Assembly (NCBI RefSeq): GCF_003073045.1
Contig: NC_037595.1
Coordinates: 16,156,252 to 16,220,251 of the forward strand
Source of the DNA: Pomacea canaliculata
Taxonomy: Eukaryota; Mollusca; Gastropoda; Architaenioglossa; Ampullariidae
Reading direction: 5' to 3'
DNA: 64,000 nucleotides
Shown here: piece by piece, positions 1,709 through 36,629 of the stretch
Numbering within the stretch: the stretch's first letter is position 1
Layout of the letters: each line of letters opens with the position of its first letter
Notes under the pieces: model-generated
What the model was told of the DNA's origin: nothing
The model's input: the letters and a program-made list of their open reading frames with translations, nothing else
Databases searched by the model: none
Position numbers and translations under genes: made by a program

Positions 1709-4367
1709 TCAAGCATCACCAACTCTGAAGAGACCAAAGAAGCTCGATTTCTCATCGCTGGACACGAGGGACGGATCGGAAACTTTCACGTACAAATTGT
1801 CTCCCCTGTCAAGCAAGACGAGTCGGCCGACGTAGTTACCATGGCGATCATTCACGTCGTCGTGCCGGAAGTGACGTGTTTTCATCAGTATGCCTGAGGC
1901 TTCCGGTGAGATGAGGCTGTCACGAAGGACATAACTGCTGACAAGTCTTGAGTTACTTCCCTTCTCTTCGTCTTCGAGATCAAAGAGGATGTGGCAGTAG
2001 ACGTAGTACAGGCCGGGGCTGACCACGTAGATGGCGTTGTCTCGGAACGTCAGACCAGGGCGCACGTGAGAAAATGATGAATCTTCTGGAGCTCGCCAAC
2101 GCTGCACAAGCTTTTGGGGGGACTCTCCTGCACGCCAGATAGGTTTATCTGTGTTTATCACTGCAATGTTTACACGATTTGTCCTGGCTCTCTCTCAAAT
2201 TCGTAAACACGACAGTACACACATAAACACACACACATATGAAAACACACATAAACACACACACATGAACACACACATGAACACATACACACACATGAAC
2301 CCACACACACAAAAACACAAATGAACACACACACAACTAGGAAGTTAGAGGTCTGACACCATTACGGGGGACTGTGCCCTAATGACATGTCAACGGATCA
2401 GGAAGTGTAACTAATGTTCAGGTATTCCCTATCTTATCAGTTTCTGGTTTTCCTTGTCTGATCCAGACGTGACTTCTGGTAAATACAACACAAAATTTCT
2501 TATAAGTTCAAAGGGTAAATTTAGCTATAAATATAAAATGAGATTTACCATAGAGGGTTTCATGTTTAATGAAAATTAGTCATCCTGGATATTTAGGTTA
2601 TGAACAGGGTGTACCTTGGATACCTCTGACCATATTATTAGAAACAACCCTAACCCTGACACTATTATTAGAGACAATAGCTAGACACACCTGTGGCACA
2701 GGTAACAAGGTGTTTCTGTCATACATACCTCTGTTAGCGGCAGAGTTGAGAATAAGATGAGCTGAGACAGCCGAGCTCTTGTTGTACACACTGTAGTCGG
2801 ACTCTTTCAAAATTTCTGTGAAAAGATGCATGGTATTATTATAATGTCCGGCAAATAATACTACAAGATAATAAAGATCAGTAATGTTTGCACAGGCTTA
2901 CACTGAAAGGTCGCCTAGTGGGTTTGTAAGTAAGACTAACTTTATTGTAGTGTATTTGAAGTAATAAAGGTAAGGAGATGCTGTCAATTTGTGAGAACTT
3001 AAGCCAAAAAATTAAAAAAAAAAAAAAGGACGCATGAAGTCTCACCTGCCAGGTGTCGAGCCCCTTGCTGTCTCAGTAAAATCTGTGAAGACAGAAGGTC
3101 AGGTTAGTCTGTTTAGTATGGTCAGGATTGTATTTTTCACCATAAAGCTTTTGTTTATAAATAGAAAGCAGTGTCCGAGAAATAATATTGTTAACGGCCG
3201 TCACTCATTTTAATCTTTCTAAAGATAAAGGTATTGCGAAAGTAAAATACGTTTCACGTGTTCTTATTTAAACTTATCATAATATTATTGCAATATTATC
3301 TTAGTGCTGAAGTTTTATTCTAGTTTAAATATTTTTGTGTCCAGTCCTACATTGATGTCATGTAAAGCTGAAGTATAAAACTAACAGTGTTTACTATATG
3401 TGGCATGAAAAAGCAACAAAGCTAGTTTGTAAAATGCAAATACTTATTTATATTACAATAGAAGATTAATCGAGTTCCTATCCTGCTAAACATAGTGACA
3501 ACTTTATATGTACATATAGCTTATATAGTGTCAAACACGTGGTTGAATATCTTAAATGGTGTAATGTTGTCATGTATGAGCATTTACTGTACTTCTATAG
3601 CTTTTAGTGTGAATATGTCATGTATTGATGCAACACACACACACACACACTTGTATTAACGTGTTTGTGTGTGCTTTCTTTTAAATGTGTGAAGTTAAAC
3701 ACATATACAGTACAAAGCATAATAAATCAGAGAATCACTCATGTTCTACTGATGACCTGTTGTACCATGCACACAACTTGGCACATTAATTAATATAATA
3801 ACTATGCATTTTTGGAACTTATTAGGTTATTAATGCACTGGAGAGCATATACACACCGGAAAACAAAGCATTGCTACAGCTGTATAGCATGTGCAACATC
3901 CCGTTAGCTGGGTAGTTGCTGAGGTCAAGAGGTGAACTTACCAGTTTGAACACTGCGGCATACTGTGAACGTGTCCTTGCGCAACAAATCTCTTCGTCTG
4001 CCTCGACATGGACGTCCAACGTCTCCAACAACATCGACTTCACCTCGCTAGTGGGGTCAGGGGTCAGCTGGAGGCAGGGGACACAGGTCTGTTCCTCGCT
4101 CTCTTGTCTAGCAGCCACGTGACTGCGTACGACGACGACTACAGCTGTGGCGGCGACGATGAGAAAGCAGACGACGGTAATGACGAAAGAGAGGATTGCG
4201 AGACGCAAGGCGGGCCTCGACCTGACGACAACCTCGCCAGGCTCGCGACACAAGTGTCGATACCTGTCGTGTGACTGCTGCTCGACATCGCTGCTCATCA
4301 ACGTGTTGCCAGGCAACTTTGAGTCCGTTGTGATGGTCTTGGAGCCAAATAATGTCGAGAAGCCCAT
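1709..4367 (-). CDS. TNF ligand superfamily member (gene A), type II membrane protein
   Basis: Four exons on the minus strand: 4367-3942, 3082-3046, 2815-2729 and 2127-1709. Together they give 322 residues with consistent phase and GT-AG borders. Exon 1 encodes a cytoplasmic tail, a membrane span at about residues 55-80, then a stalk with C-V-P-C (95-98) and a C-C pair (128-129). Exon 3 ends with SSAVSAHLIL, the usual first strand of a TNF fold. Exon 4 has GLYYVYCHILF, GDNLYVKVS and SFFGLFRVG, which match core strands of TNF ligands. Family members act as trimers on death-type or inflammatory receptors. The start chosen is the first Met; Met24 is an alternative. A kappa-B consensus and a TATA-like box lie upstream. 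The receptor partner cannot be told from sequence. Confidence 0.87.
2217..2335. repeat. CA-rich microsatellite in intron 3 of gene A
   Basis: Interrupted (CA)n tract with AAACACA and TGAACACA variants. The open frame through it on the minus strand is only the Cys/Val-rich read-through of the repeat. Confidence 0.85.
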
Positions 4368-4483
4368 TTTCTCTTGACTTTAGAAATGATTTGGGTGATT
4401 TGGTGAAGCGTTTCAACAGAGAAGTAGATTATCGGCCATCACCTAACGCTCGCCCCGTTCATCTAGCGATGTATGAGAAGTCG

Positions 4484-4493
4484 CTATTTTTAG
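4484..4493 (-). promoter_or_regulatory. TATA-like box of TNF gene A
   Basis: The minus strand reads CTAAAAATAG about 115 bases before the ATG of gene A and about 20 bases after the kappa-B match. Spacing suits a core promoter with a start near 4455. It is a variant, not a perfect TATAAA. Confidence 0.4.
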
Positions 4494-4512
4494 CCTCATG
4501 AATATTCATAGG

Positions 4513-4522
4513 GGAATGCCCC
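4513..4522 (-). promoter_or_regulatory. Candidate kappa-B (Rel) site upstream of TNF gene A
   Basis: The minus strand reads GGGGCATTCC, a full match to the consensus GGGRNWYYCC. It lies 145 bases upstream of the start codon, directly before the TATA-like box. Function is inferred from position only. Confidence 0.45.
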
Positions 4523-4529
4523 TTTCTGC

Positions 4530-5600
4530 TCAGGTGGCGAGCAGGCCAGGGTGACACGCTTTACCTGAGCTCCGCCATTGCTACTGTTAAGCCAGTTCCT
4601 GCAATAATATCAACGTTAGCTTTATAAGAATTGGGGTGTAGTTAATGCAATCTTTAGGTCAGTCCACAAACCTTTAAATAAATCGTTGTATGTTTGTGTG
4701 CCATTGTGTTTTGCAAGTTCAGGATAGTGAGTTAAATTTTAGCTATGTAATTGACATTCATCATTACCTTACAGTCACATTCAGTAATGTTTAAATTACA
4801 GTATAATTAGAGCTCTGTTAGACAAGGAGAGAATCCATTCATCGATCAAAGTAACAGGCTAGAGATTGCTAAACACACTGCTTTGAGTCAAAGAGAACTC
4901 GCTGCTTGTCTCTATTTAATTAAGGCAATGTTATCTGTAAATTTTCAGAAAACACGAGTCAAGAATTTTATGAGAAAGAATCAGCACTGAATATAGTAGG
5001 GTGAGATATCCCGGTGAGTCACACGCGTGGCTCTTTGTCGGAGAACTAGGCTACCTGTAATGTGATAAGCTTTACCTGGTGACGGTCATGTAAGGTCCCA
5101 AACTTCCAGTAAACACACGCAAGTCTTTCTCCCTTCGCATGTCAGGGTCTGTCTATCCTACTGTACAAAACAAACAAAACTGGATCCGGAAGACCAACAG
5201 CTGAAAACCATCGGCCAAAGGCACTGAGGGGTGAGCGGAGTGGTGTGGGGGAGACACCAGCAAGTGCGGGTACACTCAAACCTGCACACAGGAGGTCAGG
5301 GAATAGGTTCTCGCTCTACTGGACCGAAGCAGTAGAGAGTTTGGCAGCCCCTCCTAGTGACTAAACAACTCTGGTTAGGACCACTGTGCCCACTTCTGTA
5401 GTGTGAGGCAGGGGTGAGAAAATGTCCTGCTTACTTATTAAGTGTGGCCAGAAAATTGCAAGCACGACTCCAATCACTTCGATGATTTCCTTGTCTGTCT
5501 CTGGTTCACAGTCGACTGAATCTTACTATTTGCTTAGTGCTGAGGGAGAAAAGCTTCTAACAAAGAAGCGAAAGACCCTGCAGAAATCGAACTCTTCTAA
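4530..5600. other. Intergenic between TNF genes A and B
   Basis: No gene found. The part at about 5160-5420 is GC-richer than its surroundings and may be old repeat sequence, but I could not assign it to a family. Confidence 0.4.
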
Positions 5601-5624
5601 ACCGGTTCTTCCGTAAAGATGAAG

Positions 5625-5760
5625 ACTTTGTCCACTTGATGAAGACAAACTACGACCTTGACACTCAACCCACAGACGAGGCAGACGAGGAGGTCACTAA
5701 GCAAATAGTAAATAATAAAGGTCCAGGATCAGGTGGTATCCCTTTGTCGCTATAGAAACG
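5625..5760 (+). mobile_element. LINE reverse-transcriptase finger fragment
   Basis: The plus strand reads EEVTKQIVNNKGPGSGGIP, which resembles the finger block of non-LTR reverse transcriptases (K-x-P-G-x-D-G-I-P). It is short and ends at a stop. No flanking element ends were recognised. Confidence 0.4.
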
Positions 5761-5796
5761 ACAGGTGTGGCCTTATTGGAGAAAATGACAATTGTC

Positions 5797-6040
5797 TCAG
5801 TGCGATGAATGCATGTTCTTGACATTTTCCCTGGATGTGTCATCAGCAAAGATATGTTGGTGCCATTCGCTGATGGCTTTCAGTGACACTGTCAGTAAGA
5901 GGAGGCGATGAAGGAGAAGCCATGCGAGGATTTTCACTGCTCTGGGAGGCAGAGAGATGTGCCTGTTGTAAGTGCGGGACTTTGTAGATGTGGAATATAG
6001 CGGCTTCGTTAGGTTGCTAGGAGACCGTGCATTCATCCCA
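5797..6040 (-). mobile_element. LINE reverse-transcriptase fragment
   Basis: The minus strand reads RHISLPPRAVKILAWLLLHR followed by ISEWHQHIFADDTSRENVKN. This lines up with the NYRGISLLS-x-KVLARxLLxRL and IPESQxGFRxxRST blocks of LINE reverse transcriptases. It is heavily diverged, and opposite in strand to the finger fragment next to it, so they are probably separate insertions. Confidence 0.45.
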
Positions 6041-7073
6041 CACGCACTGAGAGGATTAGGTCATTTCCTCCAATAAGCAGTTGCGATATCGAGAGCTGAG
6101 TCAGGAGAAGCGCACAATCTCGGGGGAGGGGGAGGGAGACCAGAATAAGAGAGGTCGGCACCATCAAAGCCACCCTCAGGATCTTACCCCTGACCACCTA
6201 CCCTGACACAGCGCCCTCACCCCTCGGGAACCCATGCTGCTCATGCCGGACATGTCACGAAATTTGTGTTTGTTTATTTATTTAAAGTTATGGTCATCGC
6301 CGGCTATTGCTTGGAGGCCTTTAACAACTGTTTTGCGAGAATCTGTGATGGCTAGATGATCAAGAATTTCAATATCAATATACTTTCCTCTAATTTCGTT
6401 AAACTACTCAGCAGGAGCAAACCTGTTGTAACAGGTGTTGTTGATGTTTACAAGATGGACACAATTTCTATATTAATGTGCCATAGATAAAATATAGCAT
6501 AAAATAAATAAATCTCATTCGATACGTCAGGGTTCAACGAGGTCAACTCAGTCAGTGTAGTGCAGCTATTTATTTATTTAAATTCATGTTTAATGTTCTA
6601 ATTCAAGCATTCGTCACAATCGCATGAACATCACCTGCAACGAAGCTTTTGAGCTAAGAGTCTACACACACACACACACACACACAGAATTCACTACACA
6701 AACATGGGAAGAGAAAGAGTTGGAGACCAAGGCATGCTGGGATTTGCCTGTGAGATCAGCAATGAGATGTTCTCAAGACTGTGCCTGTAGAATGTGGCAT
6801 CTCTACTGAATGGTTTGCCTCCTCACACGTCCTCTCGTCCTCTTAGCTGTTGTGTAAGTGCAGCCCACGTGCAATAATGTACACATCTATGTATGATAAA
6901 ACACTTCACAAGCTCTTCCTCGGGCCATTCCTTAGGATGAAAGTCATCGGGTACAATGTCCGACTCTTGCAAGACATTGAAATAAACTTCAAACATGCAA
7001 TGTCAGACTTGATACTGTCAGGCTACCCTAGCCCTTCTCTGTCTGTCCTCACCTCGCCTCTGGTCACATCCAC
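6041..7073. other. Intergenic, 3' side of TNF gene B
   Basis: Contains a short (CA)n tract at 6663-6686 and TTTATT-rich stretches near 6279 and 6567-6585 that could serve gene B as minus-strand poly(A) signals. No coding sequence was recognised. Confidence 0.4.
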
Positions 7074-9209
7074 TCACTCCCCGACCCTAAACAGACCAAA
7101 GAAGCTGCCTTTCTCATCGTTGGACACGAGGTCGGAATCGGACAACTTAACATACAGTTTGTCTCCCTTGTGGAGAGCGACGAGTCCCCCCACGTAGCTG
7201 GCGTGGTGGTCGGTTTGCTGGACGTACTTGGTGTGGCGGGTCTTGAGCACGATACCCGACATCATGGGGTTCATCAGGCTCTCGCGGTACACGTAGCTGC
7301 TGACCACCCCAGTAGTAGTATCAACCTGGTACAGGATCTGACAGTAGACGTAGTACATGCCGGACGTGATGACGTAGATAGTGTTGTCGTAAAACGTCAA
7401 GCCGGGTCTCACGTGCGAGAGTCCATGGCCATCCGGGGCTTTCCACTGTTGTATTTCTTCTTTTCCTGTTCCTTTGACAATAAATATAAACTCTAGGTGA
7501 ATACATGAAATGTATTAAGGATCGACAACGGATATATATATATAAACTTATAACATACATATATTACTTAATGGAAGATAATTTAATGAATGTTGCAAAA
7601 AGTGTTAGATGAAATAACAAATAAGAAAACAAAGAAAAGCAAATAAAAGAAATATCAAAAAGTCTACGGGTATCACTTTTAGCTATGCCGTATGAGCAGA
7701 CCTGAAGTAGAAACAATTGTCTGAAACAGTAAGCATATTTATGTTTCACTGAACCCGACTCATAACAACTTTTGCTTTCGTTTTTGAGTACCTGGTGTTT
7801 TTATCTTCTTATCGACACTGTTTACTCTTCTCTATTTCATAATAAATCAGATAGAGGACGACTGATTACGCAATCGTCAGAGGTGATAAAGTCGAGGGTT
7901 GGATTCTGATAACAGTCTCTCTTGGCACAGAGCCACAAAGATTGCGGCAACCTTCCTGACCTTCTATTTGCATTTGTAAATGTTTACGTCAGCCTCTGGT
8001 TAAGTAGGTTACATAAGGTCAAGGACGTGACCCTGCTGTTACTGGATGTCTGTGTATCAATGTTTGGGCTTGAAACACCTGCTTAGCAGGTCGCGGCTCT
8101 TGCTGCCTTTATAACTCGCTCATTGTGAGATCACAGTCCTCACGAGGTTAATAGAGATTTTACAAGACACAGGTGTGACAAGATCCCTCACCAGCCTTGA
8201 AGAGCAGGTGAGCCGAGACAGCACTCGTGTCGTTTGTACTGGCCGGGTTCTGACCTCCAGCAGGTTCCAAACTATCTGCAGGATACAAGAGTAGATCCAT
8301 CAGACCCAAAACATTGTAGCTTTATACCAAACAAGTGGTTTGAGTTCAACACACATACTTTCTAGAAAAAGGATGATGAAATGCAAGGTATAAAAAAAAA
8401 CCCCAAAACAAAAACATTCATTCTGTTACTGGATATTTTCAATACAAAAACGTTATGACTATTATTTAATTTTGATGATTGCTTTTAAATAATTAAATAT
8501 TTTCAAACGCTATTTCTTTTGGTCAACATTACCAGTAAAAATAAAATGCAGTATTCTCACCTGCTAGCTTTTTGATCGTTTGCTGCCGCTGAATGATCTG
8601 GAGAAAAATCAACCATGAAGAGGATTATTGCTGAGTTTTGAGTAACCATTGTATGTAATTTCTAGCAACCTACAAATACATTTTATTTACAAAAAATGAC
8701 AGATTGGCTAGGTTTTGTTGAGTTGCTACTCACGAAGCTACTGAGACAATAAGAGAACATTTTACCAGTTTGAGGAGAGCAGCGAATTGAGCGTTCGTGC
8801 GAGCGCAGCAGACGGTCAGGTCACTGTTGTCGTCTCTCCTGACCTCCAGCACGTCCAGCAGAGACGAATCCGTGTCGCTGACGGGGTCAGAGTTCAGCTG
8901 TACACAAGGAAGACAAACCTCGTCACTCACTGAGACTTGTGCTTGCAGGTCCCCGTGGATAAGTTCACTGTCGTTGAAGAAGACGAAGGCACCGACGAGA
9001 AGGACAGCGAGGATACTGATGACACTAAGGACAAGAGAGATGACGGTGACAACGACCAGTTTCCTCCTCCTTCCTCTGGTTTGTGTCTGTCGGCGGTCTG
9101 GGAAGCCTCCTCCTTTCACGAGGAGCTCCTCCTCAACCCGCACGGCGTACGTACTGTCACCGCTGGTGGTGGAGTCCATGGAGGACTCGGAGGACAGCCT
9201 GGTCTTCAT
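7074..9209 (-). CDS. TNF ligand superfamily member (gene B), type II membrane protein
   Basis: Four exons on the minus strand: 9209-8766, 8597-8561, 8275-8192 and 7471-7074, coding for 320 residues in consistent phase. The tail (1-48) has the acidic VRVEEELL motif, then RRRK and a membrane span at about 51-78. The stalk carries C-L-P-C (99-102) and a C-C pair (134-135). Exon 2 adds the 12-residue IIQRQQTIKKLA segment. Exon 3 ends in SAVSAHLLFKA, and exon 4 has GMYYVYCQILY, GDKLYVKLS and SFFGLFRVG. The acceptor before exon 4 has a weak pyrimidine tract but is fixed by phase and by the paralogues. The N-terminal 40 residues are almost those of gene C, so B and C are a recent duplicate pair. Expected product is a membrane-anchored or shed trimeric ligand. 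Confidence 0.88.
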
Positions 9210-9434
9210 GTCGTTGTTGTTGCTGTCGGCAAAGTTGTTATCGCTGAAGCGACTGCTGCAGGTCTAAGTCCTACTTTGTCTCGTTGGCTTTTCTGCTCTC
9301 AAAGGATTGTAAACATAACTAGTGTTGAAGCAGGAGATGACCTAGTGTCTGTGTGTGTGTGAATGTGTGAGATACTGTCGCGAGCAGCGATGTTGCCCTC
9401 CCCCTGTCCCTTGGCGGTGGCGAGGTTGTGTGAG

Positions 9435-13998: not shown

Positions 13999-16003
13999 CT
14001 ACTCGCCCACCCTAAACAAGCCAAAGAAGCTGCCTTTCTCGTCGTTGGACACAGCAGAGGGTTCAGAGACCTTGACGTAGAGTTTGTCTCCCTTGTGGAG
14101 AGCAACAAGTCCCCCCACGTAGCTGGTGTGCCGGTCGGTCTGCTGGCTGTACCGGGTGTGGCGAGTTTTGAGCATGATACCTGACATGACGGGGTCTATC
14201 AGGCTCTCGCGGTACACGTAGCTGCTGACCACCTGAGGAACATCTTCGTTGTTGTCGTCGCCGCGGTTGTTGTAAAGCATCTGACAGTAGACGTAGTACA
14301 TGCCGGACGTGACGACGTAGATAGTGTTGTCGTGAAAGGTCAGGCCGGTTCTCACGTGCGACAGTCCAGAAGCATCCGGTCCCTTCCATTGCTGCAATCC
14401 TCCCTGCCCTGTACCTAAAGCCAAAATAGACATAAACATTAAAAATCCAGCTGCATCTTTTCACCTAGTTTAGATATTTATATATATTACATAATCTACC
14501 GCTGTATTCACAATCTTACTTGAGACCAAACACAGTTTATTTAGAGAAGAAATACACTTTCAATCTCATTTGAGTGCAAGTCGTTTATCTATTCTCTCGA
14601 CCTTCATCTGTCACCTAGCTCTGTTGATAACTCTTTTCTACTTGAAAATCAGTAGTGATCAGCGGTTGTAGTGGATAGATGTGATTCTGACAGGTAAGGT
14701 GTCCTATGACCTGGCACAGCGCCAGAGACTGATATCGCAGGTTGACAAACAATACCCGCCAGCCTGAGGTCAAGCAAACCTCGTACATGCATGTTGACAG
14801 TCCAAGATGTGTCACAACTGATTGGTGCATAAGAGGGCTAGGGCTTAATTATTTATTGATAATTAGTCTGCTGCTCTTGCCAAATATTGATCACCGCCAC
14901 ATAGCAGAGGGTTAGGGTGTATCACGTGACATGACGGACACAGAACTACAACCTAGTCTCTCACCAGCTTGAATGAGCAGATGAGCTGAGACTGCACTGC
15001 TTGAGCCTGTCTTTGCAATTTTATGACCTCCAGCAGGTTCCAGGATATCTGTAAGAAGATACAGGAGAAAATTAGTCATATCTGAAATTGTCCTCGTGAT
15101 AATATTTCTGGTGACTGTTGTTAGTAAGTAATTTGTGTGTTTGTGTGTGTGTGACTGTCAAAGCAGGGTGAATGTCCGACGTGTTGGAGGTACTTTGAGG
15201 TCTGATTATTCAATAATAAATCCTCGAACATCAATACACCTTTTACTTTGATAGAATGTTACTGCTTCTGCATAAATCAAGTCCACATAGGTAGTACGAT
15301 AAATTGTAATTTTGTAATTTTTGTATATTTTATCAGGGCAATATAGACTGTTATACAAATAATTTGTTTTATTCTCACCTGTAAGCTTCTGTATCATTTG
15401 TTGTCGTTGAATGATCTGAAATAATCAATGAAAAGATTAAGGAGAAATATTGGAAAACAAAACTTTAGGTTTTTATTTTTTGAAATGTTGTTTATTCTCT
15501 TAAATACACATTCTTTCCCACAATTATAGCAAGCAAAGACTATTTACCAGTTTAAAAAGTGCGGCGAATTGGACGTTAGTGCGCGCGCAGCAGATGGTTG
15601 GCTTGCTTTCGTCGTCTTTCCTGACATCAAGAAGGTCAAGCAGAGATGAACCCTTGCCGCTGACGGGGTCAGAGTTCAGCTGTACGCAAGGCAGACAAAC
15701 CTCTTCACCCGCCGCAACTTGTGTCTGTTGGCCTCCGAGTATGATGTCGCTGTTATTGAAGAAGACGAAAGCAGTGATGAGAAGGACAGCGAGGAGACTG
15801 ATGACACTAAGGACAAGAGAGATGACGGCGACAACGAATAGTCTCCGCCTCCTTCCCAGGGCCTGTGTCTGTCGGGGTAGTGGGAAGCCTCCTCCCTTCA
15901 CGAGCAGCTGCTCCTCAACCCGCACAGCATATGTACTGTCACCACTACTGTCACCACTACTGGCAGAGTCCATGGAGGACTCGGAGGATGGCCGGGTCTT
16001 CAT
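13999..16003 (-). CDS. TNF ligand superfamily member (gene C), type II membrane protein
   Basis: Four exons on the minus strand: 16003-15548, 15415-15379, 15048-14965 and 14414-13999, coding for 330 residues. The tail repeats that of gene B with a small SGDS duplication. The membrane span is at about 55-82, the stalk has C-L-P-C (103-106) and C-C (138-139), and the micro-exon reads IIQRQQMIQKLT. Exon 3 ends SAVSAHLLIQA. Exon 4 has GMYYVYCQMLY, an insert rich in Asn/Asp (NNRGDDNNED) in the loop where the paralogues also vary, then GDKLYVKVS and SFFGLFRVG. All key TNF-fold blocks are present, and nothing suggests loss of function. A frame on the opposite strand over exon 1 is only its shadow. 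Confidence 0.88.
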
Positions 16004-19578: not shown

Positions 19579-22019
19579 TCATCCTACCCCAAGCATGCCA
19601 AATACCCGTTTTCTTTGAAGTCTAGTCCCCGACCTTAAACATGCCAAAGAAACTGCCCTTCTCGTCATAGGACACGAGGACGGGTGGGACAGCTTGACAT
19701 AGAGTTTGTCTCCCTTGTGCAGCAGGAGTTGTCCCCCGACAAAGGTGCTGTGTCGGTCTTGTTTGTCACCCTGGGTGTGGCGGGACTTGAGCACGATACC
19801 CGACATGTTGGGGTACATCAGGCTAGTGACGTACACGTAGCTGCTGGCCACCTGAGGACCGTCATCGATGCTGTCATCGCTGATGTTGTAGAGGATCTGA
19901 CAGTAGACGTAGTACGTGCCGGATGTGATGACGTAGATAGTGTTGTCGTGAAAGGTCAGCCCAGGTCGCACTAGTGACCAGCTGCTCTCTTCAGGACCTT
20001 TCCACTGCTGCTTGTCTTGAGATCCCGACCCTGGAACAGGTGAACAGGTGAAACCATGCAAATACTGGCGTGTCAAGGGTGACAGTGAAAGGTTACATGA
20101 ATTTCAAGATGGAGGTGAAAACATAATGTAGATGGTATAAAGGTCAAGATGGCAGATGACAAGCTATGAGAAGACGTTTGAATTAACGAAACGAATTAGC
20201 AAAAGAGAGAAGGAAAATTCGTAGTGCGTGTGTTTGCTAGTCTGCTATTTGTAAAATCTCTTCACGTGTGTCGTACGTCATCCTTACGTACTCAATAGTA
20301 CTTGTTGTTTGTAGGTTTCTTGCTAAAGAGTCATCAATGATGTAAATAAACCTGTTCCTTCCTTACCTGGTTTCCAGAGCAAGTGAGCGGATACCTCCAT
20401 CTTTGTGTTTGTACTCAAGAGGCTGACGGCGTTAGGCGGCGCTTTAAGCTCTGCAGATGACAATAAACACAGAAGTCTTGTGATATACACTTCATACATC
20501 ATACACCCCGTTACACACACACACACACACATATATATAATGTATTCTATGCACACCGAGATATAATTACACTGAGAAAACACATCGGGCGATGCACGCT
20601 GTAACATCATGACATCCGGCAATGAATGCTTGAGTGCCAGTGCGACTTTTTGTTACATCTATTTTTATTTATTAGTTATTTTATTACCTGTTCTCTACTA
20701 AAATGATGAGGTCTTCTAGGTTCTTAAAAATGTTTTGAATCAGCCTTTTGACACAGTTTACGCCAAAAGAAAAAAATTTTCTTGATCAAAGAAAAATCCT
20801 TTTAATTAAAACTACCATAGGACAAAGAATGTTAGTGTGTTCTGTATTATTATATTTATTTATTTATCAAGAGTGATATATTGTGTTTTTGAATAGACGG
20901 ACAGAGGCTCACCATAACGAGATAAAAACATCCCAATGTTAAAACAAATGTCAAGGACTAAGTAGGTAGTTCTCAAAACTAAGAAACAGATTCGCTAGTA
21001 GCCTGTGTCTTACCTGAAGATGCTCGAATGCTTTCTTGACGCTGGAGCATCTGAAATCGAATTGGCTTCAGGTAGTTTAATCTACATAATGTGGTTTAAT
21101 TGGAAAAAATATTTAATAATTTCCTTGGAGGTCATTGTAAACTAATGTATTCAGAACGATATTATCACATTCTAATTAGCGATACTCAATTAAAGCTGTG
21201 TTCATACTTTCTGCTATATACAATGGCAAGACTGTAATTATAGATGGAAGGGAAGAGCCGAGTTATTAGAGCGCTGGCGTCTAAACTGAAAGGGTCGCAG
21301 GTTCGATACCCGAGTAGCGCTGCAAACTTCCCTTAGTAGACACATCCGGTAGGAATGGGTACCCGACTTCAGTGAGGGTTGGGAAAGGTAAGGCAGCAAA
21401 CGGAAGGTTGGTTCCGAGAAACGTGAGGTCTCTAATACTTCACCCCTCCAACGACCCTAAAAGGTCAGGGACGACCTTACTTGATATGTATCTGTGTTGT
21501 TGAGTGAACATGTCCAGACGTTAATTCCGGCGAACATCTCATGTATATACAAAGACTCGGGAATATACGAGAGTACATATAACATATACTTACCAGTTTG
21601 AAAAGTGCGGCCAGTTGTGCATTAGTGCTTGCGCAGCAAATCTTCAAATCGTTGTTGTCTTTTATGACCTCCAGCCCGTCAGGCAGAGGTGAGAGCAGGT
21701 CAGCGACAGGGTCAGAGGTTAGTTGAGCGCACGGGAGACATACTTCGTCTTGTAAGTTAACAAGTTGTGTTGACAAAGCATCGTTCAAGAGCAACCACCC
21801 AGCAGCAGCAACGGCCAACAGCAAGCTGGCAATACTCAGACACACGGAGATTCCAACGATGAAGCCTAAATTTGTTCTTGTCTTTTGAGATCCTTCTTTC
21901 TTCACCAGGAACTCGACTTCCACAGGGAGGGCATAGGACAAGCTGCTGCCTCCCCCGATGCTGCCAGATGCTAGGGACGATACTCGACTATCAGACATAT
22001 CAAAACCTTTGGACAACAA
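19579..22019 (-). CDS. TNF ligand superfamily member (gene D), with a frame break near the 3' end
   Basis: Four exons on the minus strand: 22019-21594, 21050-21014, 20450-20367 and 20030 onward. Exon 1 gives a membrane span at about 52-78 and the stalk with C-L-P-C (94-97) and C-C (128-129). The micro-exon reads MLQRQESIRASS and exon 3 ends with VSAHLLWKP. Exon 4 has GTYYVYCQILY and GDKLYVKLS, but then changes frame at about 19678-19682, where one base is missing compared with the four paralogues. As read, the protein ends at 19579 with an unrelated tail (LACLRSGTRLQRK). The family-like ending SFFGMFKVGD and its stop at 19622 lie in the next frame. The last beta-strand is therefore lost unless the base is an assembly error. 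Either a young pseudogene or a sequence error; the other exons look well kept. Confidence 0.75.
20514..20531. repeat. (AC)n microsatellite in gene D
   Basis: Short pure AC run followed by ATATATA, in the intron between exons 2 and 3 of gene D. Confidence 0.75.
21250..21480 (+). mobile_element. tRNA-derived SINE in intron 1 of TNF gene D
   Basis: The head has a tRNA-like arrangement: GAGTTATTAGAGCGCTGG near 21258 as an A-box region and a B-box, GGTTCGATACC, at 21300-21310. A body of about 160 bases follows, with GGGTACCCGAC and a GGAAAGGTAAGG stretch, and it ends near ACGACCTTA. The 3' terminal CCA and proper acceptor-stem pairing of a working tRNA are absent. It lies antisense to the host gene. 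Confidence 0.6.
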
Positions 22020-23960: not shown

Positions 23961-24751
23961 TCAACAACTCCTTGTGCACTTCGATTTCCTTGTCTTCTAC
24001 AATAGCAGATGGCTTGAAGGTCTATTTATAGCGTTGTTGGTATTGATGATTGCAGCTTAGCAAAGTGACAAATAGGGCATAAACGTAAAAAAAAAAACCA
24101 AACTGAACAAAAATAATAATAAAAAAGTATTTTTGGTATTTTTTCCTATCTCACTGTGTTGATTTTTATCTAATTTTTTTGTGCATATGCCAATGTATGT
24201 CATTATGTGTGTAGATAATAGAGACCTTGCTTTTTCTTATTTTTAACCATCATTTTTTATCAATGAATGATTGTTCGAAAACTTTGTTTAAATTTTTTTT
24301 TTACTGTTTTGCTTCTCTTCGATAATTTTAACTCTAGATCCTTAACGGTGTTCGTCAAATTATTATTATTATTTTTTTCTTTTTTTTTTGCAACAAAGCA
24401 CACCGGTATTTGCCAAGGAAACATGCTCACATCTGTTAATTAAAAACATGTTGCTACTATTCTAAAAATATCGGAAAGTATTTGCTACTTCTCGTTGATC
24501 AAACAAGCTGTTCTTATAAAATCCTCAGTCAGCAGGACATGTTTGGTAAAGGCGTGCCTTCTAGTTTCTAGTTGGAGAATCGCTTTCATGTCTTTGTTGC
24601 TTTGACAATCTTTGAAGCTGACAGACAAGACCTTATTGTTTGAGACTACATCTCGGTGTCTGATGTCTGGGTGTTGGCCCCATCCGCTGGTGCTGGACGA
24701 TTTCTCTCAGACTGTGCCACCTGGACAGTTCCTTAAGAGTTCTACCTGGGT

Positions 24752-25879
24752 ATGACATCTGCTTCAGATGACACCTCCAGCACAATGACTTCTACATTAA
24801 ACTCGAGTGCATGTAGTCACGCGTTTCTCGACACCAACAATTCGAATGGTTGTGAGAGTCAGAAAACCCGACATCTGATTGAGATGATATTTTACACAGG
24901 TTTTGGAACTCTCAAATGTCTGGTTGGCATGACGACCACCATCATCAGCTGTATGGTGTTTCGGCGACAGGGTCTTCGAGATCGTATAAACGTGGAATTG
25001 TTTTCACTTGCTCTGGTTGACTGCTTTTACTTCATCGGTTTCTTCGCTCAGTTTCCTGTACCCTTTTTCATCCGTCTACACAATAGTCATCTTTATGAAG
25101 AGTACTCATCCATATCAACAGTAACATTGACAGGTGTAATTCGCGGCTTCTCCCTGACATCAGGTTGTATCAACATGGTGGTGGCTGTGGACACGCGTGT
25201 GTGTGTCGTGTGTCCACACCGTGCTGCCAGCATTATGCGCACCAAGACAATGATTTTCCTGATAGTCTCGTGTTTCCTATTCATACAAGTCGCTTATTTT
25301 GTCTGTCCGTTGTCTTATATCCCTCTCAAAATTACGACAGGAGAAAGTGTACATTGGTCAATTGTTACATCTAAATTTTTTTCCGAAAACAAATTATTTG
25401 TATATTTCTTAAAAAATATTGTGCTTGAAACAGGTCTCCCTCTTGTTAATTTGACGACTGTGTCGATAAGCACCATCATCACAGTAAGCAGGCTGAGATC
25501 AGCGATATCATGGAGAGCAAAGAGCAGTCACATCGCGAATAACTTCAACATCCGACAGGTGGCGCTAACGAAGATGCTGGTGGTCGTGGCCGGTGTTTAT
25601 ATTGTAGTCATGCTACCATACGTAGCCTGCCAGCTGAGCTTGTGTTTTATTTTCTCCATTTTAGGGGAAGCCAGTGTTCTGGACATGTTCATGTCTGGCC
25701 TTGCGGTGGTGAACACAGTTACTCAAGTCAACGGCTGCATCAACTTCTTTATCTATTATCATCGCTCCTCCAGATTCCGTCAGGAACTGCGGCACATGTT
25801 AACATGTTGTGTGAGAACATCACACACATCATCTACATCAGCCAGTCATCAACAACCTTATTTGAGTGATACATTTTAA
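24752..25879 (+). CDS. Class A seven-helix receptor, gastropod chemoreceptor/FMRFamide-receptor-like (GPCR 1)
   Basis: Single-exon gene of 375 residues. N-glycosylation sites (for example NSS at 17) lie in the outer tail. Seven hydrophobic spans lie at about 46-70, 83-106, 125-153, 167-190, 218-246, 270-296 and 312-336. The first inner loop reads RRQGLRDRIN and TM2 has FSLALVD, a signature shared with the other two receptors here and, as far as I know, with expanded mollusc chemoreceptors. The usual D-R-Y is D-T-R (147-149), and the TM7 N-P-x-x-Y is replaced by NFFIYY. The tail is Ser/Thr-rich. It should sit in the plasma membrane and signal through a G protein; the ligand is unknown. AATAAA follows the stop at once. 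Confidence 0.87.
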   Translation: MTSASDDTSSTMTSTLNSSACSHAFLDTNNSNGCESQKTRHLIEMIFYTGFGTLKCLVGMTTTIISCMVFRRQGLRDRINVELFSLALVDCFYFIGFFAQFPVPFFIRLHNSHLYEEYSSISTVTLTGVIRGFSLTSGCINMVVAVDTRVCVVCPHRAASIMRTKTMIFLIVSCFLFIQVAYFVCPLSYIPLKITTGESVHWSIVTSKFFSENKLFVYFLKNIVLETGLPLVNLTTVSISTIITVSRLRSAISWRAKSSHIANNFNIRQVALTKMLVVVAGVYIVVMLPYVACQLSLCFIFSILGEASVLDMFMSGLAVVNTVTQVNGCINFFIYYHRSSRFRQELRHMLTCCVRTSHTSSTSASHQQPYLSDTF

Positions 25880-27930: not shown

Positions 27931-27934
27931 CATC

Positions 27935-28154: not shown

Positions 28155-28157
<3 letters not shown>

Positions 28158-29450: not shown

Positions 29451-30461
29451 AACTTTTGCCAGCACCAGACTACCGAGCTCACCACCGACCAGCTTCACAA
29501 CCTCCCACTATCACGACTGCTGACATTTTATTCTCCGGACAATCACTTTGATAACCTACTCATAACTGCTGGTCATGTGTGTTTCCTACACACGTGTTTA
29601 AGTCTCTAAACAATAGCATCGTAAATATGTACTAAGTACATTCTTTTTGAATAACAGCATTGATAGGAAAAGCCCAACTGAGGTTAGAGGTGCTGTGACG
29701 ATAATCACACATGTTGTCATATCTTTGAGTTGTCTATCAGAGAAGCGAAAATATATTTTAATCTTATGGTGTCCAGAAATTTAATTTTAGCTTGCTTAAT
29801 TTCTGCTGAATGTAAATCACACACACACACACAGAGACACAGACACAGACACACGGAAACACACACACACACACACTCACACGAGCTGACATACCTGCAA
29901 ACGCATAATTGCATTCACAGAAATCCACATAAGAGACATTAACACGAAATGGCAGGTACACCACCCGACGTTTGTATTTTACATTTACTTTCATCAAACT
30001 AAATTGCACAGTGCTCTGGTTATCTGAAAATGGAGGGAAAATAACAATATAAGATAAAAATGTAATCCTCAAAAGTGCTTAGAATCAATGATTGCCTACC
30101 TGTTTGAGCTAAAAGTTCATCTGAGATGCACATGAAAATTACTCGTTAAATACATTTTACCAGAAAGACAATAATATTTATGTTTGTTTTGTTGCATTTC
30201 TTGAGAAGACTTCGAAACTGCTGTCAGAAACTAGTTATTAGGTACTAGATTTTTGAATAAGAATATGATTATACTTTCAGTACATGTGTAAATGCTTTTT
30301 TTCAATTCCCAGAGAATGCAGCAATTATTTTGAACAAATGTTATATTTTTAATAAATGACTCTTTGCGCCATTTTTAATGTTTCTTTGTACAAAAGCAAT
30401 TACCTCAAAGTGTATTTATCTGCTTTGATGTGTTCCTTTAGAGATATGTTTTGTTACTGGG
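29451..30461. other. Intergenic upstream of GPCR 2
   Basis: Contains a CA/GACA microsatellite at about 29818-29882. No gene recognised. The promoter of GPCR 2 should lie here, but no TATA box stands out. Confidence 0.4.
29818..29882. repeat. (CA)n with AGACA variants
   Basis: Interrupted CA repeat; frames through it on both strands are repeat read-through. Confidence 0.85.
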
Positions 30462-31508
30462 ATGGCAGATGACTTTGAGAAATCAAATATGTCGGCTATA
30501 ATACAGAATGTGGAAGCGAGCAGCCTTAGAGGTTGGACTAACTGGACAGAACTGCAGGACTACCTAGTGAGTGAGAAGGTTTACCGCTACATACTACTCA
30601 CATTTGGCGGTTTTGTGCCGTTTGTCGTTTCGCTCATTGGAATCCCTGGAAACATAGTCTGCTGCGTAATATTCCAGCGCCTGGGACTCAGGGACCGCAT
30701 GAATCTCTGTCTCTTCTCTCTTGCCCTCGTTGACCTTCTTCACGTTGCTTACGCATTAGTGTGGTCATCTAGTGTTCTGTTGACCTACTTTAGTTGGTTT
30801 GGATTGGACGAGGAGAAGTACGTCACGTGCCTGCGTGTCAACCTTGGCGTTTCCTACGGTCTTCGAACGACCTCTGGCCTTTACTTCCTCGTGATTGCAA
30901 TTGAACGGTGCTTCTGTGTGTTGTTCCCCCTGCGTGCATCCTCCCTACTGCGCACCCGCACGATGGCAGCACTGCTACTTGTCTTCGCTTTTTTTCCTCA
31001 GCTAGGATTTAGTCTATTGCCTTTAAAGTATAAAGTCGAACAGGTTGTGACAGTCGTTGGTGTCCGTTGGCAGCTTGTCCCATCCACCATGTGGTATCAA
31101 CACAGAGTTATCATGGACGCCATCTTGTATATGATTATGAGCGTTGTAGTGCCAATAGTAACCTTTTTAATTATTTTCCTAGCGACAGTTATTACAATAA
31201 TCAAGCTAAGAGCCGCGATGTCGTGGCGGGAGAAGGCGACCTCCACCATTGACCACAGTCACGTGCAGCAGACAGGACTGACCAAAATGTTGGTCCTCAC
31301 CTCCTGCGTCTACATCATCACCATGGTGCCGTTTGTGTCGCTAATCATTATCCATCTCGTTATTCCCGAGTTTTCCACCAGCGGTCGGTATGTTAACGTG
31401 TACCTGGCTTACTACGCTGTGGCTGGTGCAGGTCCCTTCATCAACAGCGCCGTCAACGTCTTATCTACTACAGTCGTTCATCGCGTGTTAGAGCAGAGCT
31501 GCGTTTAA
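30462..31508 (+). CDS. Class A seven-helix receptor, chemoreceptor-like (GPCR 2)
   Basis: Single-exon gene of 348 residues. TM1 holds the conserved G-N (63-64), the first loop reads FQRLGLRDRMN, and TM2 has SLALVD with the key Asp at 91. TM3 ends in E-R-C (148-150), nearer to the classic D/E-R-Y than GPCR 1. TM5 lies at about 218-246, TM6 at about 275-300 and TM7 at about 313-337. TM7 is unusual: it reads FINSAVNVLSTTV and lacks the Tyr of N-P-x-x-Y. The cytoplasmic tail is only about ten residues (ending EQSCV), much shorter than in GPCR 1. It is the same subfamily as the other two receptors but the most divergent of the three. Ligand unknown. Confidence 0.87.
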   Translation: MADDFEKSNMSAIIQNVEASSLRGWTNWTELQDYLVSEKVYRYILLTFGGFVPFVVSLIGIPGNIVCCVIFQRLGLRDRMNLCLFSLALVDLLHVAYALVWSSSVLLTYFSWFGLDEEKYVTCLRVNLGVSYGLRTTSGLYFLVIAIERCFCVLFPLRASSLLRTRTMAALLLVFAFFPQLGFSLLPLKYKVEQVVTVVGVRWQLVPSTMWYQHRVIMDAILYMIMSVVVPIVTFLIIFLATVITIIKLRAAMSWREKATSTIDHSHVQQTGLTKMLVLTSCVYIITMVPFVSLIIIHLVIPEFSTSGRYVNVYLAYYAVAGAGPFINSAVNVLSTTVVHRVLEQSCV

Positions 31509-34240
31509 TATGCAACTGCAACTTGTCAGAAACTTAATATAACAATTCAGATAATTGAAAGATGGCCAGCGACTGTCCTTTCAATCATTTTTCTTGCTTT
31601 GATATCCCTTCTTATTTCATTCTTATTTAGCACTATTGATTAGTTCTAACGTTCTCTTAGAATGAACTGAAATTTTGTTTATTTTCATCCGTAGTATAAG
31701 ACATCTTGGTAGTACACTTCGTCGTAATTATTCTCTTGATGGTGCAGTAGCCCTTATACAGTCAATACAACTGTTGAAAGGGAGCGAGGACCTTCCAATC
31801 GACACAGATCCGAACCCTGTCCCAGTCTAGGGACGTACCCGTGATGTCTTTAACGAGTGCTTGCTGTCATACGCACCAAGATAAGGTAATGTCGGGTACA
31901 GCCGCCGAACGAACACCAACTTGGTGCAACATGATTCCCTCAACGGACTCATGCACATAAAGATTCACTGGTAGATGTAGCAATAAAATGTCCCAAGAAC
32001 AGGTTTATTTTTTGGATGTTACAAATTCTCCCGACTGAAGTAGATCAGTACTTTGGTATTTAATCAAACTGAGCCAAACGGTGATTACTGCTAAAGAACC
32101 ATCTATATCTTACAGCTATAAATCTTCGTTAAACAAACTACATTTTTTATACGTATGAAATGGTAAACTGATATAGTAACATTCTGGTAACTGGTAAAAT
32201 GAGGCATCAGGAGAGGTAAGAGCAAATTATTAGCGGGTGTCAGTTATGATTTGCTTATGTGAGAATAGAAGAAATTATATATGTTGGACTCAGTTATGTG
32301 AATGACTACTGGTGTATTGTTCATTTGTTTTCTTCAGGTTTAAGGAAAAAACATGTCAGTGCCGAATCTCGTGGAAAACAAATATATTCATCATCGGCCA
32401 CCGTGTCTTCTCGGGGAGGTTGGCGAACTACTTACATTTCAAACTTGACGATAGCGTTTCCAGAACCTTCCAAAAGCTCTCGCTACAGTAAATGACTACA
32501 GCACAGTCTGGCACAAAACTACCTACCCTTGACCTTTGCACTATTTATCTATCTATTCTCTCACCAATGAACGCGGTATCAACAGAAAAAGTATATCTCA
32601 TCTGGATGGGGGCATAGTTTAATCAAGGGAGATAGCTATGCTTATTTTATTGCACGACACAGTTGCACTTCGCTCCCTTTTGATTGTGGTAGAGTAGAGC
32701 ATCTCATCAACAAGAAGGACGCTGGCAATGAAACTAATGATTATTAAGTTGGTGACAACGAAAAGAAAAAAAGTTTTCGTAACGAATATTATTAAGTCTG
32801 CGTGACGTACAAATATTGATAAGTTGTCACAAACTTTTTACAATTTATGTGTTCTTTATTGTCCAACATATTTTCACAACTCTAAAACATGTTTAATTTA
32901 AAAACAAAAAGTGTAAAAATATGAAGACATAATACTGATAAGAGGAAATTTAAGTACATCAATCTAAACGTTTTTTTTTGCGCATGTAACAGCTGCCTTT
33001 TGAAGGTAAATTGATTGCCGTTAGTGATATGTAACATGTAACAGGTACACGGGATCAAGAGAGCAGTAGACCACGGTACACATATTGTCAGTAAAATATC
33101 CATCACACAATATCAGTAGATTATCCCCTCACACAATGCCAATGTAGTATACCCTCACAAGGTAAGTTCTCCCTTACATTGACAATAGAGAATCATATTG
33201 CTAGTAATCTTCTCACACAACCTGTGGAGTATCCTCCCTTCACACAACATTAACAGCAAAAAGTAAATCTCCTTGTATATCAGTGTAGCTTTATACAACA
33301 GTCCGTTGTCAGGATGTTGTTGGCAGAGAATATGATTGAATGCACACAGACTCGTCTCCGTTATTATTTCAATACAAGATAAGTACAATGAAATACTATT
33401 GCAGATAACAACATATATAGATATATAGATAAAAAGAAATAATGCACAAAATAAGTATCAGTCATAAGTGTCCCGGAGACACCACTTGTGTCATATCTGA
33501 CCTCAACTGCTTTACATTGAAGCAATAAATGTTTTGTAATTTACATATTGATATCGTGATGAATGTTTGTAGAACTTTCTTAACGCAAGTCATTGCAGCC
33601 ATATAAACTACTATTACAACGTAGAATTAAATGTCTCTATTATTTACATACGTATTCACAGTAATCTCGCACACAGTGCAAATTGTTTTGTCCTAAGACA
33701 TACGAATGATGTGAGCATCTCGTCATGACAGGCTGACGCTGGATGTCACCACATGATTGTAACAGTAGACTGTGATGTCTAACCCTGTTAAGTGTAGCTG
33801 TGACACAGGTGTACACGAGGACTAACAGACATTGAAATTCACAACAGATAGTAAATACAAGAAACTGTTGCCAAGGTGAGAGGACGTCCCTCTCAGTTAT
33901 AAACATCTTAAACACTGTGTTTAATGATAATTAATACAAATGTTTAAAACGCCTCACATCATCAGTGTAAAACTATAACCCTTGGCAAGGTAGCCTCTCA
34001 CTAGTTTAACATCCATAAATAATTATGTACATTTTTATGCGTACGTACATATCCATAAGCATAAACACTTTGATGTGGATGTCTTTCTTCAATATAAAAT
34101 ATTTTACCTAATATATGATGTATGAAGCAATTCTTTTGTCAAGACAATAAATCTAATAATAGTCAATTGGTGAACATTTACATTGGGCATTTTGTTACGG
34201 TGTTTACAAGTTTATATCATACAAACGCCTTTTCTGTGTC
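31509..34240. other. Intergenic between GPCR 2 and TNF gene E
   Basis: No gene recognised. Sequence at about 31740-31935 is GC-richer than its neighbours and may be an old short repeat. Short frames at 32259-32495 and 33640-33915 show no known motifs. Confidence 0.45.
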
Positions 34241-36629
34241 TTAATCGCCTATCCTAAACAACCCGAAGAAGCTTCCCCTCTCGTCATTAGACACAAGAGT
34301 TGTGTTCGAGGTCCTGACGTACAGCTGGTCGCCGGCCTGCAGCTGGAAAAGCCCTCCGACATGAGAGACGTGGAAGTCCCTGTCGCCCCCGAGCCGAGTG
34401 TGACGAGCCTTCAGCAGGATACCCGAGATAGGGGGCAGCACCACACTGTCACGATACACGTAGCCACTGACCACGTGGGGTCCACCTTCCAAGTCGACGT
34501 CAAACAGGAACTGAGCATAGACGTAATACACACCCGGGGTGACCACGTACAGTGAATTGTCATAGAACCTGAGGCCAGGTGTGACATGAGACAGGTGTGT
34601 TTCGTTTGGTCCACTCCACTGCTGCCGCTGTCCTGATCCTAAACCTGTGACAGGGTGACAGATGAATATGTCAACTTCTTGGTTACATGTCGGTAAATGT
34701 GACAAGGTTTTAAATGTAACCCGTCAACTAACAGATAACATGTAGATAACTGAACATCCTTATCTTATTAATTTCTCGGAAATGATTTCCTGTTGAGTAT
34801 AATGACTCAGCGCTGACAGTTTCACTTGGACAAAGATTGCTGTCACAGGAAGCATGATCATGTAAAGGTATAATAGTACTAATTTGAAAATCTACAAAAT
34901 ATCTTGGCTTACATGTTATTTTCACTCTGTTCCTACTTTAAAAGATAAACCACATCCTCATACAACAAAGAGTATTACTCGAGACTAAACACGCACACTG
35001 GGACTCGCACACCCACGCTTCTGTCCACAAGGAAGAAAATGGAGCACGACAGTTTCAACGACGTCTGACTCATCACATGCAGCAGTTATCACTGGCCCAG
35101 TTATGGATCCTCCCACTCACCCCTGGGTTCATGACCCATTGGGGTTGGGGTTTGATGTTCTTGTCTCTGCCCTGAACCCATTTCCTCTCCGTCTCTCTTA
35201 TCTCTAACCCTGCTTTTTAACGCGAATAGACGGGACATCCTTGTCCTCATTGTGAGACTCATTTAGTCATCATGTGTTGGTATCATCGTCATCAGACTGA
35301 TGGAACACTGACATGCACACCAGGTGGAATGGCTATCGTATCACAAGAGGGGGAAATGAATAAGGAGATCCTGAACTTGGGATGACTATCCAGATTACTG
35401 TGAACGAAGAAGACAGTGTTGTTCATAAAAAAATATCTTTTTTTATGCTGCAGATCCGTTTTTCTCAGGAAATTATTATTCCTATAACTAGTGAAGTTTA
35501 AATTATGTAAGGAGCTGTTGATCTGCTGACTTTGTGGGCACTCACCTCGTCGGAACAGCAGGTGTGCAGAGACAGCGCGCTGTGGGGCAGGAGGTGAAGG
35601 GACTGGAGGCTTTGTCTGTGTCCAGGGATCTGAAAAAAGGGGAAACAGTTTTAGACATTAGATGTGTTTACACTTCCAGCACAAAGCATGTCATGCTAGT
35701 ATTAATAAACTCATTCAAACACTACCGACCCACTAACTAAATTTACCTGTATGTTCTTGTTCTTTTTTCTCCCGGCTTCGAAAACTCTGAAAGAAAACAA
35801 AAACCACTCTACATTAATCCATGTTAGCTAATTTGAGATGCAATTAAATGAACAATGACTTCGAGGCAAAAAAGTTTGATATAATGGTCATGACAAGAAA
35901 TTCTGCCGCCACTATTTAGCTTCACTTAACAAACTTTCTTGTTTCTCTAAGAATTAGTTCAGGTGGGTAGAGTACACTGCAGACATTTTGGTCACTGACT
36001 ATTAAGACTCGGGTAGAAGGATGATGTCCTTCAGTTAAAAACTAAGCATTATCAGCAAACGAATATAATTAAAGAAATATAATAAAAATGAAATGATACA
36101 ATCTGTCACTTTGGTCTATTTTTAGATTGTGCTTTGTGTTACACCTGTGACAGTCAAGTTCGGAAGTTAATCTCGTGTACTACACAGTGTGAGTGACATT
36201 AGTCTGTGTATTTACCAGCTGAAGGAGGGTCAGGTACTGGGCTTTGGTTGTCGCACAGCACGTGACAGAGCCGTTGTGGTCCCTTCGAACCTCCAGAGCA
36301 TTCTTCAGCCACGACCTGTCGGAAGGGTCATAGGTCACGTATTCACATGGAAGGCAAAGCGTTCTGTCAGTCTCTGCCAGGGAGGATGGCCAGTTTGTCA
36401 AACTGACGAGAAGAACCCAGACCGAGACACTAACGGCGATGAGGAGGCTGATAACACTGACAACACAGGCCACCCGGGCCAGTCGCAGTTTTCTCCCTTT
36501 GCTCTTTTTAAGGGACACGGAGGGATAACGACGGAGGCGACAGTTGTCCATGTCGACCACAAAAGCGTAAGTGCCGCTGGAAGAGCTGCAGCTGGAGACC
36601 GTGGACAAGTCCAACTTTTGCGAAGACAT
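34241..36629 (-). CDS. TNF ligand superfamily member (gene E), type II membrane protein
   Basis: Four exons on the minus strand: 36629-36216, 35786-35747, 35629-35546 and 34638-34241, coding for 311 residues. The tail is Ser-rich with a basic KKSKGRKLRL run before the membrane span at about 52-76. The stalk has C-L-P-C (92-95) and C-C (124-125). Exon 2 is 40 nt rather than 37 and encodes the charged SFRSREKKEQEHT. Exon 3 is Pro-rich and ends RAVSAHLLFRR. Exon 4 has GVYYVYAQFLF, GDQLYVRTS and SFFGLFRIG. It is the most divergent of the five, lies apart beyond two receptor genes, and is intact. The same exon plan shows common descent with A-D. Confidence 0.87.

What the first reader, a model, noticed from the sequence alone, without database searches (positions are those of the whole stretch)
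1709..36629. Tandem array of five TNF ligands with one shared exon plan
Genes A-E all lie on the minus strand and share a four-exon plan with identical phases (0, 1, 1) and near-constant exon sizes. TNF ligands are usually few in invertebrates, so a local expansion points to lineage-specific diversification. Cytoplasmic tails and the loop after YYVYCQ vary most, while the core strands are kept.
Basis: partly seen in the sequence, partly recalled or inferred. Interest (0 to 1): 0.75.

Follow-up and report, generated by a model that had tools for sequence, protein, structure and literature searches.

The report
Old snail array of TNF ligand genes
A snail chromosome carries a row of related TNF-type signalling genes with the same four-exon layout; the row is real and looks old, and expansions of this family are already reported from another mollusc, so it is interesting but not a new kind of thing.

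Summary
Five TNF-ligand genes (A-E) lie on the minus strand at 1709-36629, each predicted with four exons, intron phases 0, 1, 1, and a TNF domain above the Pfam cut-off. The window lies in a 440,159,624-base genome that fits Pomacea canaliculata. A sixth copy, F, with the same plan sits just outside. A genome search showed no further close copy (counts are lower bounds).

Corrections. (1) The array looks old: dS 0.53 for B-C, 0.96 or more in the other 13 finite pairs; dN/dS 0.29-0.41. (2) 23 TNF genes are already cited for oyster. (3) D and F each lack one base at the same codon before the last strand. They are probably not sisters (AU p 0.030, but SH p 0.159). Two of three neighbouring GPCRs also show one-base indels, so assembly error leads, then recent pseudogenes.

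The loop after YYVYCQ is hypervariable, but positive selection is not shown. Whether the array is lineage-specific could not be tested. No transcript was seen.

The parts
3942..4367 (-). gene A exon 1: cytoplasmic tail, membrane span, CxPC..CC stalk (426 nt, ends phase 0)
3046..3082 (-). gene A exon 2, 37-nt microexon (ends phase 1)
2729..2815 (-). gene A exon 3: stalk and first TNF strand (ends phase 1)
1709..2127 (-). gene A exon 4: most of the TNF domain, stop
   Evidence: acceptor has a weak pyrimidine tract
8766..9209 (-). gene B exon 1
8561..8597 (-). gene B exon 2 (37 nt)
8192..8275 (-). gene B exon 3
7074..7471 (-). gene B exon 4, TNF domain
15548..16003 (-). gene C exon 1
15379..15415 (-). 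gene C exon 2 (37 nt)
14965..15048 (-). gene C exon 3
13999..14414 (-). gene C exon 4, TNF domain
21594..21998 (-). gene D exon 1
21014..21050 (-). gene D exon 2 (37 nt)
20367..20450 (-). gene D exon 3
19579..20030 (-). gene D exon 4 as read in the assembly; frame shifts before the last strand
   Evidence: Pfam match stops at position 119 of 127
19663..19686 (-). place of the one-base frameshift in D; the sequence beyond it is conserved in another frame
36216..36629 (-). gene E exon 1
35747..35786 (-). gene E exon 2 (40 nt)
35546..35629 (-). gene E exon 3
34241..34644 (-). gene E exon 4, TNF domain

Best explanation
This is an old tandem array of six TNF-superfamily ligand genes (five in the window, one just outside) in a gastropod genome, most likely Pomacea canaliculata. 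Each gene encodes a type II membrane protein: a short cytoplasmic tail, one membrane span, a stalk with four conserved cysteines (CxPC..CC), a short exon-2 linker, and a C-terminal TNF domain. Shown from sequence: the exon plan, the hydrophobic span, the cysteines, the TNF domain and overall purifying selection. Inferred: the proteins trimerise, are shown on the cell surface, and bind TNF receptors encoded elsewhere in the same genome so as to drive death, stress or immune signalling. Divergence of the CD loop (strand and loop names, and its role as a receptor-contact loop in known TNF ligands, are recalled) and of the cytoplasmic tail changes which receptor is met and in which cell. The array arose by repeated local duplication of a gene that already had the four-exon plan. 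The one-base frameshifts in D and F are most likely assembly errors or, failing that, recent inactivations in a birth-and-death family.
For: Exon plan identical in 6 of 6 predicted genes, 18 of 18 introns GT-AG. Pfam TNF above cut-off in 6 of 6. PDB profile search of exon 4: 73 sequences matched, the 60 shown are all TNF-family ligands, best RANKL at E 1.7e-11. Foldseek of the C exon-4 model: best matches TNF and LIGHT, with TRAIL and RANKL in the 50 rows shown, E from 4.2e-7. One strong hydrophobic span with a positive N-side flank in 6 of 6. CxPC..CC cysteines invariant in 6 of 6. Pairwise dN/dS 0.29-0.41 in 14 of 15 pairs, over the codons before the shift site; in A-E dS is saturated. TNFR_c6 repeats at six loci on C1, C2 and C3 of the same genome. 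The stalk motif, with a predicted phase-0 donor after that exon, also occurs in an unlinked TNF gene on C14, so that part of the plan seems to predate the array. In the whole genome only the six array copies match exon 4 of C strongly. For the frameshifts: two of three nearby GPCR genes also have one-base indels, and the assembly was PacBio, corrected by Pilon, from a highly heterozygous genome (passages of PMC6129957).
Against: No transcript was seen, so splicing is predicted only. The structure model is weak (mean pLDDT 66.1, made from 6 sequences and exon 4 alone) and its fold matches have rmsd of about 5-9 A and TM-scores of 0.5-0.6. Trimerisation and receptor binding were not tested. dS values near or above 1 are near saturation, so the age is rough. 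Two independent frameshifts in the same codon have roughly a 0.3% chance if random (1/300), which sits badly with random assembly error. Kappa-B-like sites: 5 against 2.54 expected, not significant, so that gives no support for immune regulation.
Confidence: 0.8

Rival explanations
1. D and F are real, recent pseudogenes: birth-and-death evolution leaves four working ligands (A, B, C, E) and two that lost the last strand.
For: Frameshift in both; Pfam match cut short at 119 and 118 of 127; birth-and-death is usual for tandem immune families (general knowledge).
Against: No other lesion seen: 6 of 6 predicted introns of D and F have GT-AG borders; dN/dS of pairs with D or F (0.30-0.41) is like that of the other pairs; the sequence beyond the shift is still conserved with its stop in register. 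The losses would have to be very recent and fall in the same codon twice.
Confidence: 0.3
2. The frame of D and F is restored in the cell (programmed ribosomal frameshift or RNA processing) at a shared site before the last strand.
For: Two genes that are probably not sisters (AU p 0.030 and KH p 0.038 against the one D+F tree tested) are shifted at the same codon, and the sequence downstream is conserved in the other frame: D-F tail pN 0.12, pS 0.69 over 17 codons.
Against: By inspection neither site is a canonical slippery heptamer; neighbouring GPCR genes also carry indels, which points to base errors; no transcript or peptide was seen. The SH test does not exclude D and F as sisters (p 0.159).
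Confidence: 0.03
3. The genes are C1q-domain proteins, which share the jelly-roll fold and are greatly expanded in molluscs.
For: Same fold superfamily (PMC10672478, search listing and start of abstract only); C1q expansions by tandem duplication in bivalves (PMC6835236, search listing and start of abstract only).
Against: Pfam TNF over cut-off in 6 of 6 and no C1q match at the thresholds used; the 60 PDB sequence matches shown are TNF-family ligands; type II membrane layout.
Confidence: 0.01
4. The copies diversified under positive selection in receptor-contact loops to give distinct receptor specificities.
For: In B-C the CD loop holds 13 changes in 23.5 nonsynonymous sites against 29.5 in 263.2 in the rest of the TNF domain (Fisher p 1.3e-6; N against S inside versus outside p 0.017).
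Against: Within the loop N and S do not differ (p 0.39); the loop has indels, so its alignment is unsure; only the B-C pair was tested this way; dN/dS is at most 0.41 in 14 of 15 pairs; the EF loop shows nothing (p 0.25). Relaxed constraint explains the loop equally well.
Confidence: 0.25

Closest known systems
Crassostrea gigas TNF superfamily (23 genes; Gao et al. 2015, itself not held, cited in PMC12843592 and PMC7674686; oyster clusters in PMC4346834)
   Same: Mollusc TNF ligand expansion, partly in clusters of three or pairs (passages)
   Different: A gastropod, and a run of six; sequences could not be compared because no oyster genome is held
Human TNF gene
   Same: Four exons, three introns, most of the protein in the last exon (passages of PMC7985780 and PMC7189060). 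The coding exon sizes 186/46/48/422 nt, hence phases 0, 1, 1, are recalled and come from no call. If right, this is the same plan as in the snail genes, which suggests an ancestral layout
   Different: Longer first exon in the snail, with a four-cysteine stalk; no RX[KR]R furin motif after the span in any of six copies
RANKL, TRAIL, FasL, LIGHT, TNF (solved TNF ligands)
   Same: Best sequence and fold matches
   Different: About 18-26% identity in the 50 fold-search rows shown; no orthology claimed
Tunicate TNF superfamily (up to 14 genes in a species, PMC12843592, start of abstract and passages)
   Same: Dynamic TNF family expansion outside vertebrates
   Different: Different phylum; its main text has 0 hits for 'intron' and 'phase', so exon plans could not be compared

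Membership tests
TNF superfamily ligand | TNF homology domain above the curated Pfam cut-off | tested here: met
   6 of 6 copies, 48.3-70.6 bits against 23
TNF superfamily ligand | Jelly-roll TNF fold | tested here: met
   Foldseek of C exon 4 to TNF, LIGHT, TRAIL, E from 4.2e-7, TM 0.5-0.6, rmsd about 5-9 A; one copy only, weak model (pLDDT 66.1) that lacks the exon-3 strand
TNF superfamily ligand | Type II membrane topology with C-terminal TNF domain | tested here: met
   One strong hydrophobic span, positive N-side flank, 6 of 6; hydropathy only
TNF superfamily ligand | Complete domain including the last strand | tested here: inconclusive
   A, B, C, E complete; D and F frameshifted before it in this assembly
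TNF superfamily ligand | Homotrimer | not testable with these tools
   only a single chain was modelled
TNF superfamily ligand | Binds a TNF receptor | not testable with these tools
   TNFR_c6 repeats exist at six loci in the genome; binding is unknown
Lineage-specific tandem expansion | Copies form one clade against other molluscs | not testable with these tools
   No mollusc genome but the window's own is held; within it A-F group apart from three C14 genes, 93/93. Scans of viral contigs (33 pattern matches) and genome contigs (51) gave no relative
C1q domain protein | Pfam C1q match | tested here: not met
   No C1q match for A-E at E up to 0.1, nor for F at E up to 0.01

The most novel reading that the evidence does not exclude
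Two TNF genes of the array (D and F), probably not sisters, carry a genuine, long-kept one-base frameshift at the same codon, and the cell restores the frame when it makes the last strand. Ligand output from these copies would then depend on a recoding step.
Probability: 0.03. Interest if true: 0.75.

Novelty: new member of a known kind. Interest (0 to 1): 0.33.

Why it matters
The mollusc TNF expansion in the papers I saw is that of the oyster. A compact six-gene gastropod array with one exon plan, an invariant cysteine stalk and a hypervariable loop is a good system for asking how a cytokine family diversifies. The shared-codon frameshifts are a warning for anyone who counts working copies from this assembly. 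If they prove real, they raise a sharp question.

Tried and rejected
Gene conversion: in the strands that flank the CD loop (a region picked after looking at the alignment), codons are 95-100% identical among B, C, D and F against 51-70% elsewhere (Fisher p 4.8e-4 to 1.2e-5 in 6 of 6 pairs among them; not in the 5 pairs with E; with A only A-D is below 0.05). A run-length test with 2000 permutations in four settings gave several pairwise p below 0.05 (such as B-C 0.011, C-D 0.012, D-F 0.012) but no global p below 0.05 (lowest 0.051, B-C). Conversion is therefore not claimed. Regional constraint with high GC3 is as likely.

NF-kappaB-like sites: 5 found, 2.54 expected, 14 of 100 shuffles reach 5. 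Rejected as evidence.

A seventh copy: a weak tblastn match at window 5662-5555 (E 0.51) did not look like a TNF fragment on inspection. No match at E up to 1 was listed in the fetched flanks C6:16116252-16146251 or 16220252-16250251.

Relatives in viral contigs and genome contigs: none confirmed.

Assembly error rate: the histone search was not decisive (17 matches, 11 without and 6 with an inner stop; introns and pseudogenes confound it). The HSP70 family search meant as a better yardstick did not complete.

Literature: ten searches. I saw no paper on this Pomacea array in their listings, but most subscription papers are not held, so I do not claim it is unpublished.
Full report
What is there. 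I rebuilt the five gene models from the raw sequence. Exon 1 carries the cytoplasmic tail, the membrane span and a stalk with CxPC..CC cysteines. Exon 2 is a 37-40 nt microexon. Exon 3 holds the rest of the stalk and the first TNF strand. Exon 4 holds the rest of the TNF domain. Phases are 0, 1, 1 and borders GT-AG in 5 of 5 genes. The exons were picked by homology and by GT-AG borders, so this agreement is consistency, not independent proof. Pfam TNF is above cut-off in 5 of 5.

Where it is. The genome behind the window has 440,159,624 bases in 24 contigs, and the window is C6:16156252-16220251. The length fits the 440.1 Mb Pomacea canaliculata assembly (passages of PMC6129957). The species name is my inference from this length; no call names it.

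How far the array goes. A sixth copy F lies just beyond the low end of the window on the same strand (L012, C6:16154387-16151897), with exons 438, 37, 72 and 392 nt as read, the same phases and GT-AG borders. A search with exon 4 of C found ten matches: the six array copies, two short tail pieces of F and D that belong to the frameshifts, and two weaker matches on C14. The Pfam TNF search of the genome gave 11 matches: the six, three on C14, one on C3, one on C5. The tool says such counts are lower bounds.

What it is. The profile of exon 4 matches 73 solved sequences; the 60 shown are TNF-family ligands, best RANKL at E 1.7e-11. The AlphaFold model of C exon 4 is weak (mean pLDDT 66.1), but its best Foldseek matches are TNF, LIGHT and TRAIL, with TM 0.5-0.6 and rmsd of about 5-9 A. 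Hydropathy gives one strong span with a positive N-side flank in 6 of 6, as expected for type II membrane proteins, and no RX[KR]R furin site after the span in any; looser RxxR motifs occur inside the TNF domain of A, C, E and F. The four stalk cysteines are invariant in 6 of 6. An unlinked TNF gene on C14 has the same stalk motif, and its first exon is also predicted to end in phase 0. So that part of the plan seems older than the array. Human TNF also has four exons with most of the protein in the last, and its coding exon sizes as I recall them give phases 0, 1, 1 too. The shared plan therefore looks ancestral rather than new.

How old and how constrained. Over the codons before the shift site, synonymous divergence is 0.53 for B-C and 0.96 or more for the other 13 pairs with a finite value; A-E is saturated. 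dN/dS is 0.29-0.41 in the 14 finite pairs. This is purifying selection on old copies, though values near saturation are rough. The codon tree is ((((B,C),D),F),A,E), with support 100, 89 and 75; the nucleotide tree and the protein tree place E and F differently with weak support, and none of the three joins D with F. A tree of nine TNF domains keeps A-F together with 93/93, but the C14 branches are long and the order inside is open.

What varies. Mean identity over 15 pairs is lowest in the membrane-proximal linker (0.16) and the exon-3 stalk (0.17), then the tail, the membrane span and the CD loop (0.30 each); strands keep 0.58-0.75. In B-C the CD loop is strongly enriched in nonsynonymous change against the rest of the domain (p 1.3e-6), but N does not exceed S within the loop (p 0.39) and indels blur the alignment. 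I therefore do not claim positive selection.

The frameshifts. D and F each lack one base at the same codon, just before the last strand. Beyond it the usual sequence continues in another frame, with the stop in register. The one tree tested with D and F as sisters is disfavoured (AU p 0.030, KH p 0.038) but not excluded by the SH test (p 0.159), so two events are likely, not certain. Against a biological reading, GPCR2 (one base fewer, near 31460) and GPCR3 (one base more, near 59265) next to the array also have one-base indels relative to GPCR1. Four indels among nine genes suggest residual errors of the assembly. Against pure error stands the coincidence in one codon, about 1 in 300. I could not measure the assembly's error rate: the histone search was not decisive and the HSP70 search did not complete. 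My judgement is assembly error about 0.65, real lesions about 0.3, recoding about 0.03.

Receptors. TNFR_c6 gives 26 matches at six loci on C1, C2 and C3, none of them on C6 (150 of 159 candidates scored, so a lower bound). Ligands and these receptors are thus not linked. Pairing is unknown.

What is known. Oyster has 23 TNF ligands (cited in PMC12843592 and PMC7674686, passages), with TNF genes in clusters of three or pairs and varied responses to bacteria, heat and air exposure (passages of PMC4346834). A mollusc TNF expansion is therefore a known kind. The paper dedicated to it (Gao et al. 2015) is not held.

Verdict. The lineage-specific claim stays open. The loose end worth following is the shared-codon frameshift.

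Noticed in passing
window 24737-25879, 30429-31508, 58545-59661 (+): Three intronless rhodopsin-like GPCR genes, two inside the array between D and E and one beyond it. The first and second match Pfam 7tm_1 (the first below the curated cut-off); the third gives no Pfam hit in its first open stretch but aligns to the first. The second and third have one-base indels.
   Followed up: partly
window 40216-40833 (-), 42116-42847 (-): LINE-like fragments: reverse transcriptase (RVT_1) and endonuclease (Exo_endo_phos) matches.
   Followed up: no
genes B, C, D, F, strands flanking the CD loop: Codons are almost identical between these copies around the hypervariable loop; the conversion test was not significant globally.
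   Followed up: partly
G000 C3:37796784-37797944 and C3:37837823-37838986: Two neighbouring stretches, each with ten TNFR_c6 matches in one open frame (427 and 426 aa), apparently a tandem duplicate.
   Followed up: no
L019 (C3) and L020 (C5): Two very similar TNF genes on different chromosomes whose TNF domain seems split over exons.
   Followed up: no
window 38107-38220 and 43238-43351: A 114-nt direct repeat, 85% identical.
   Followed up: no
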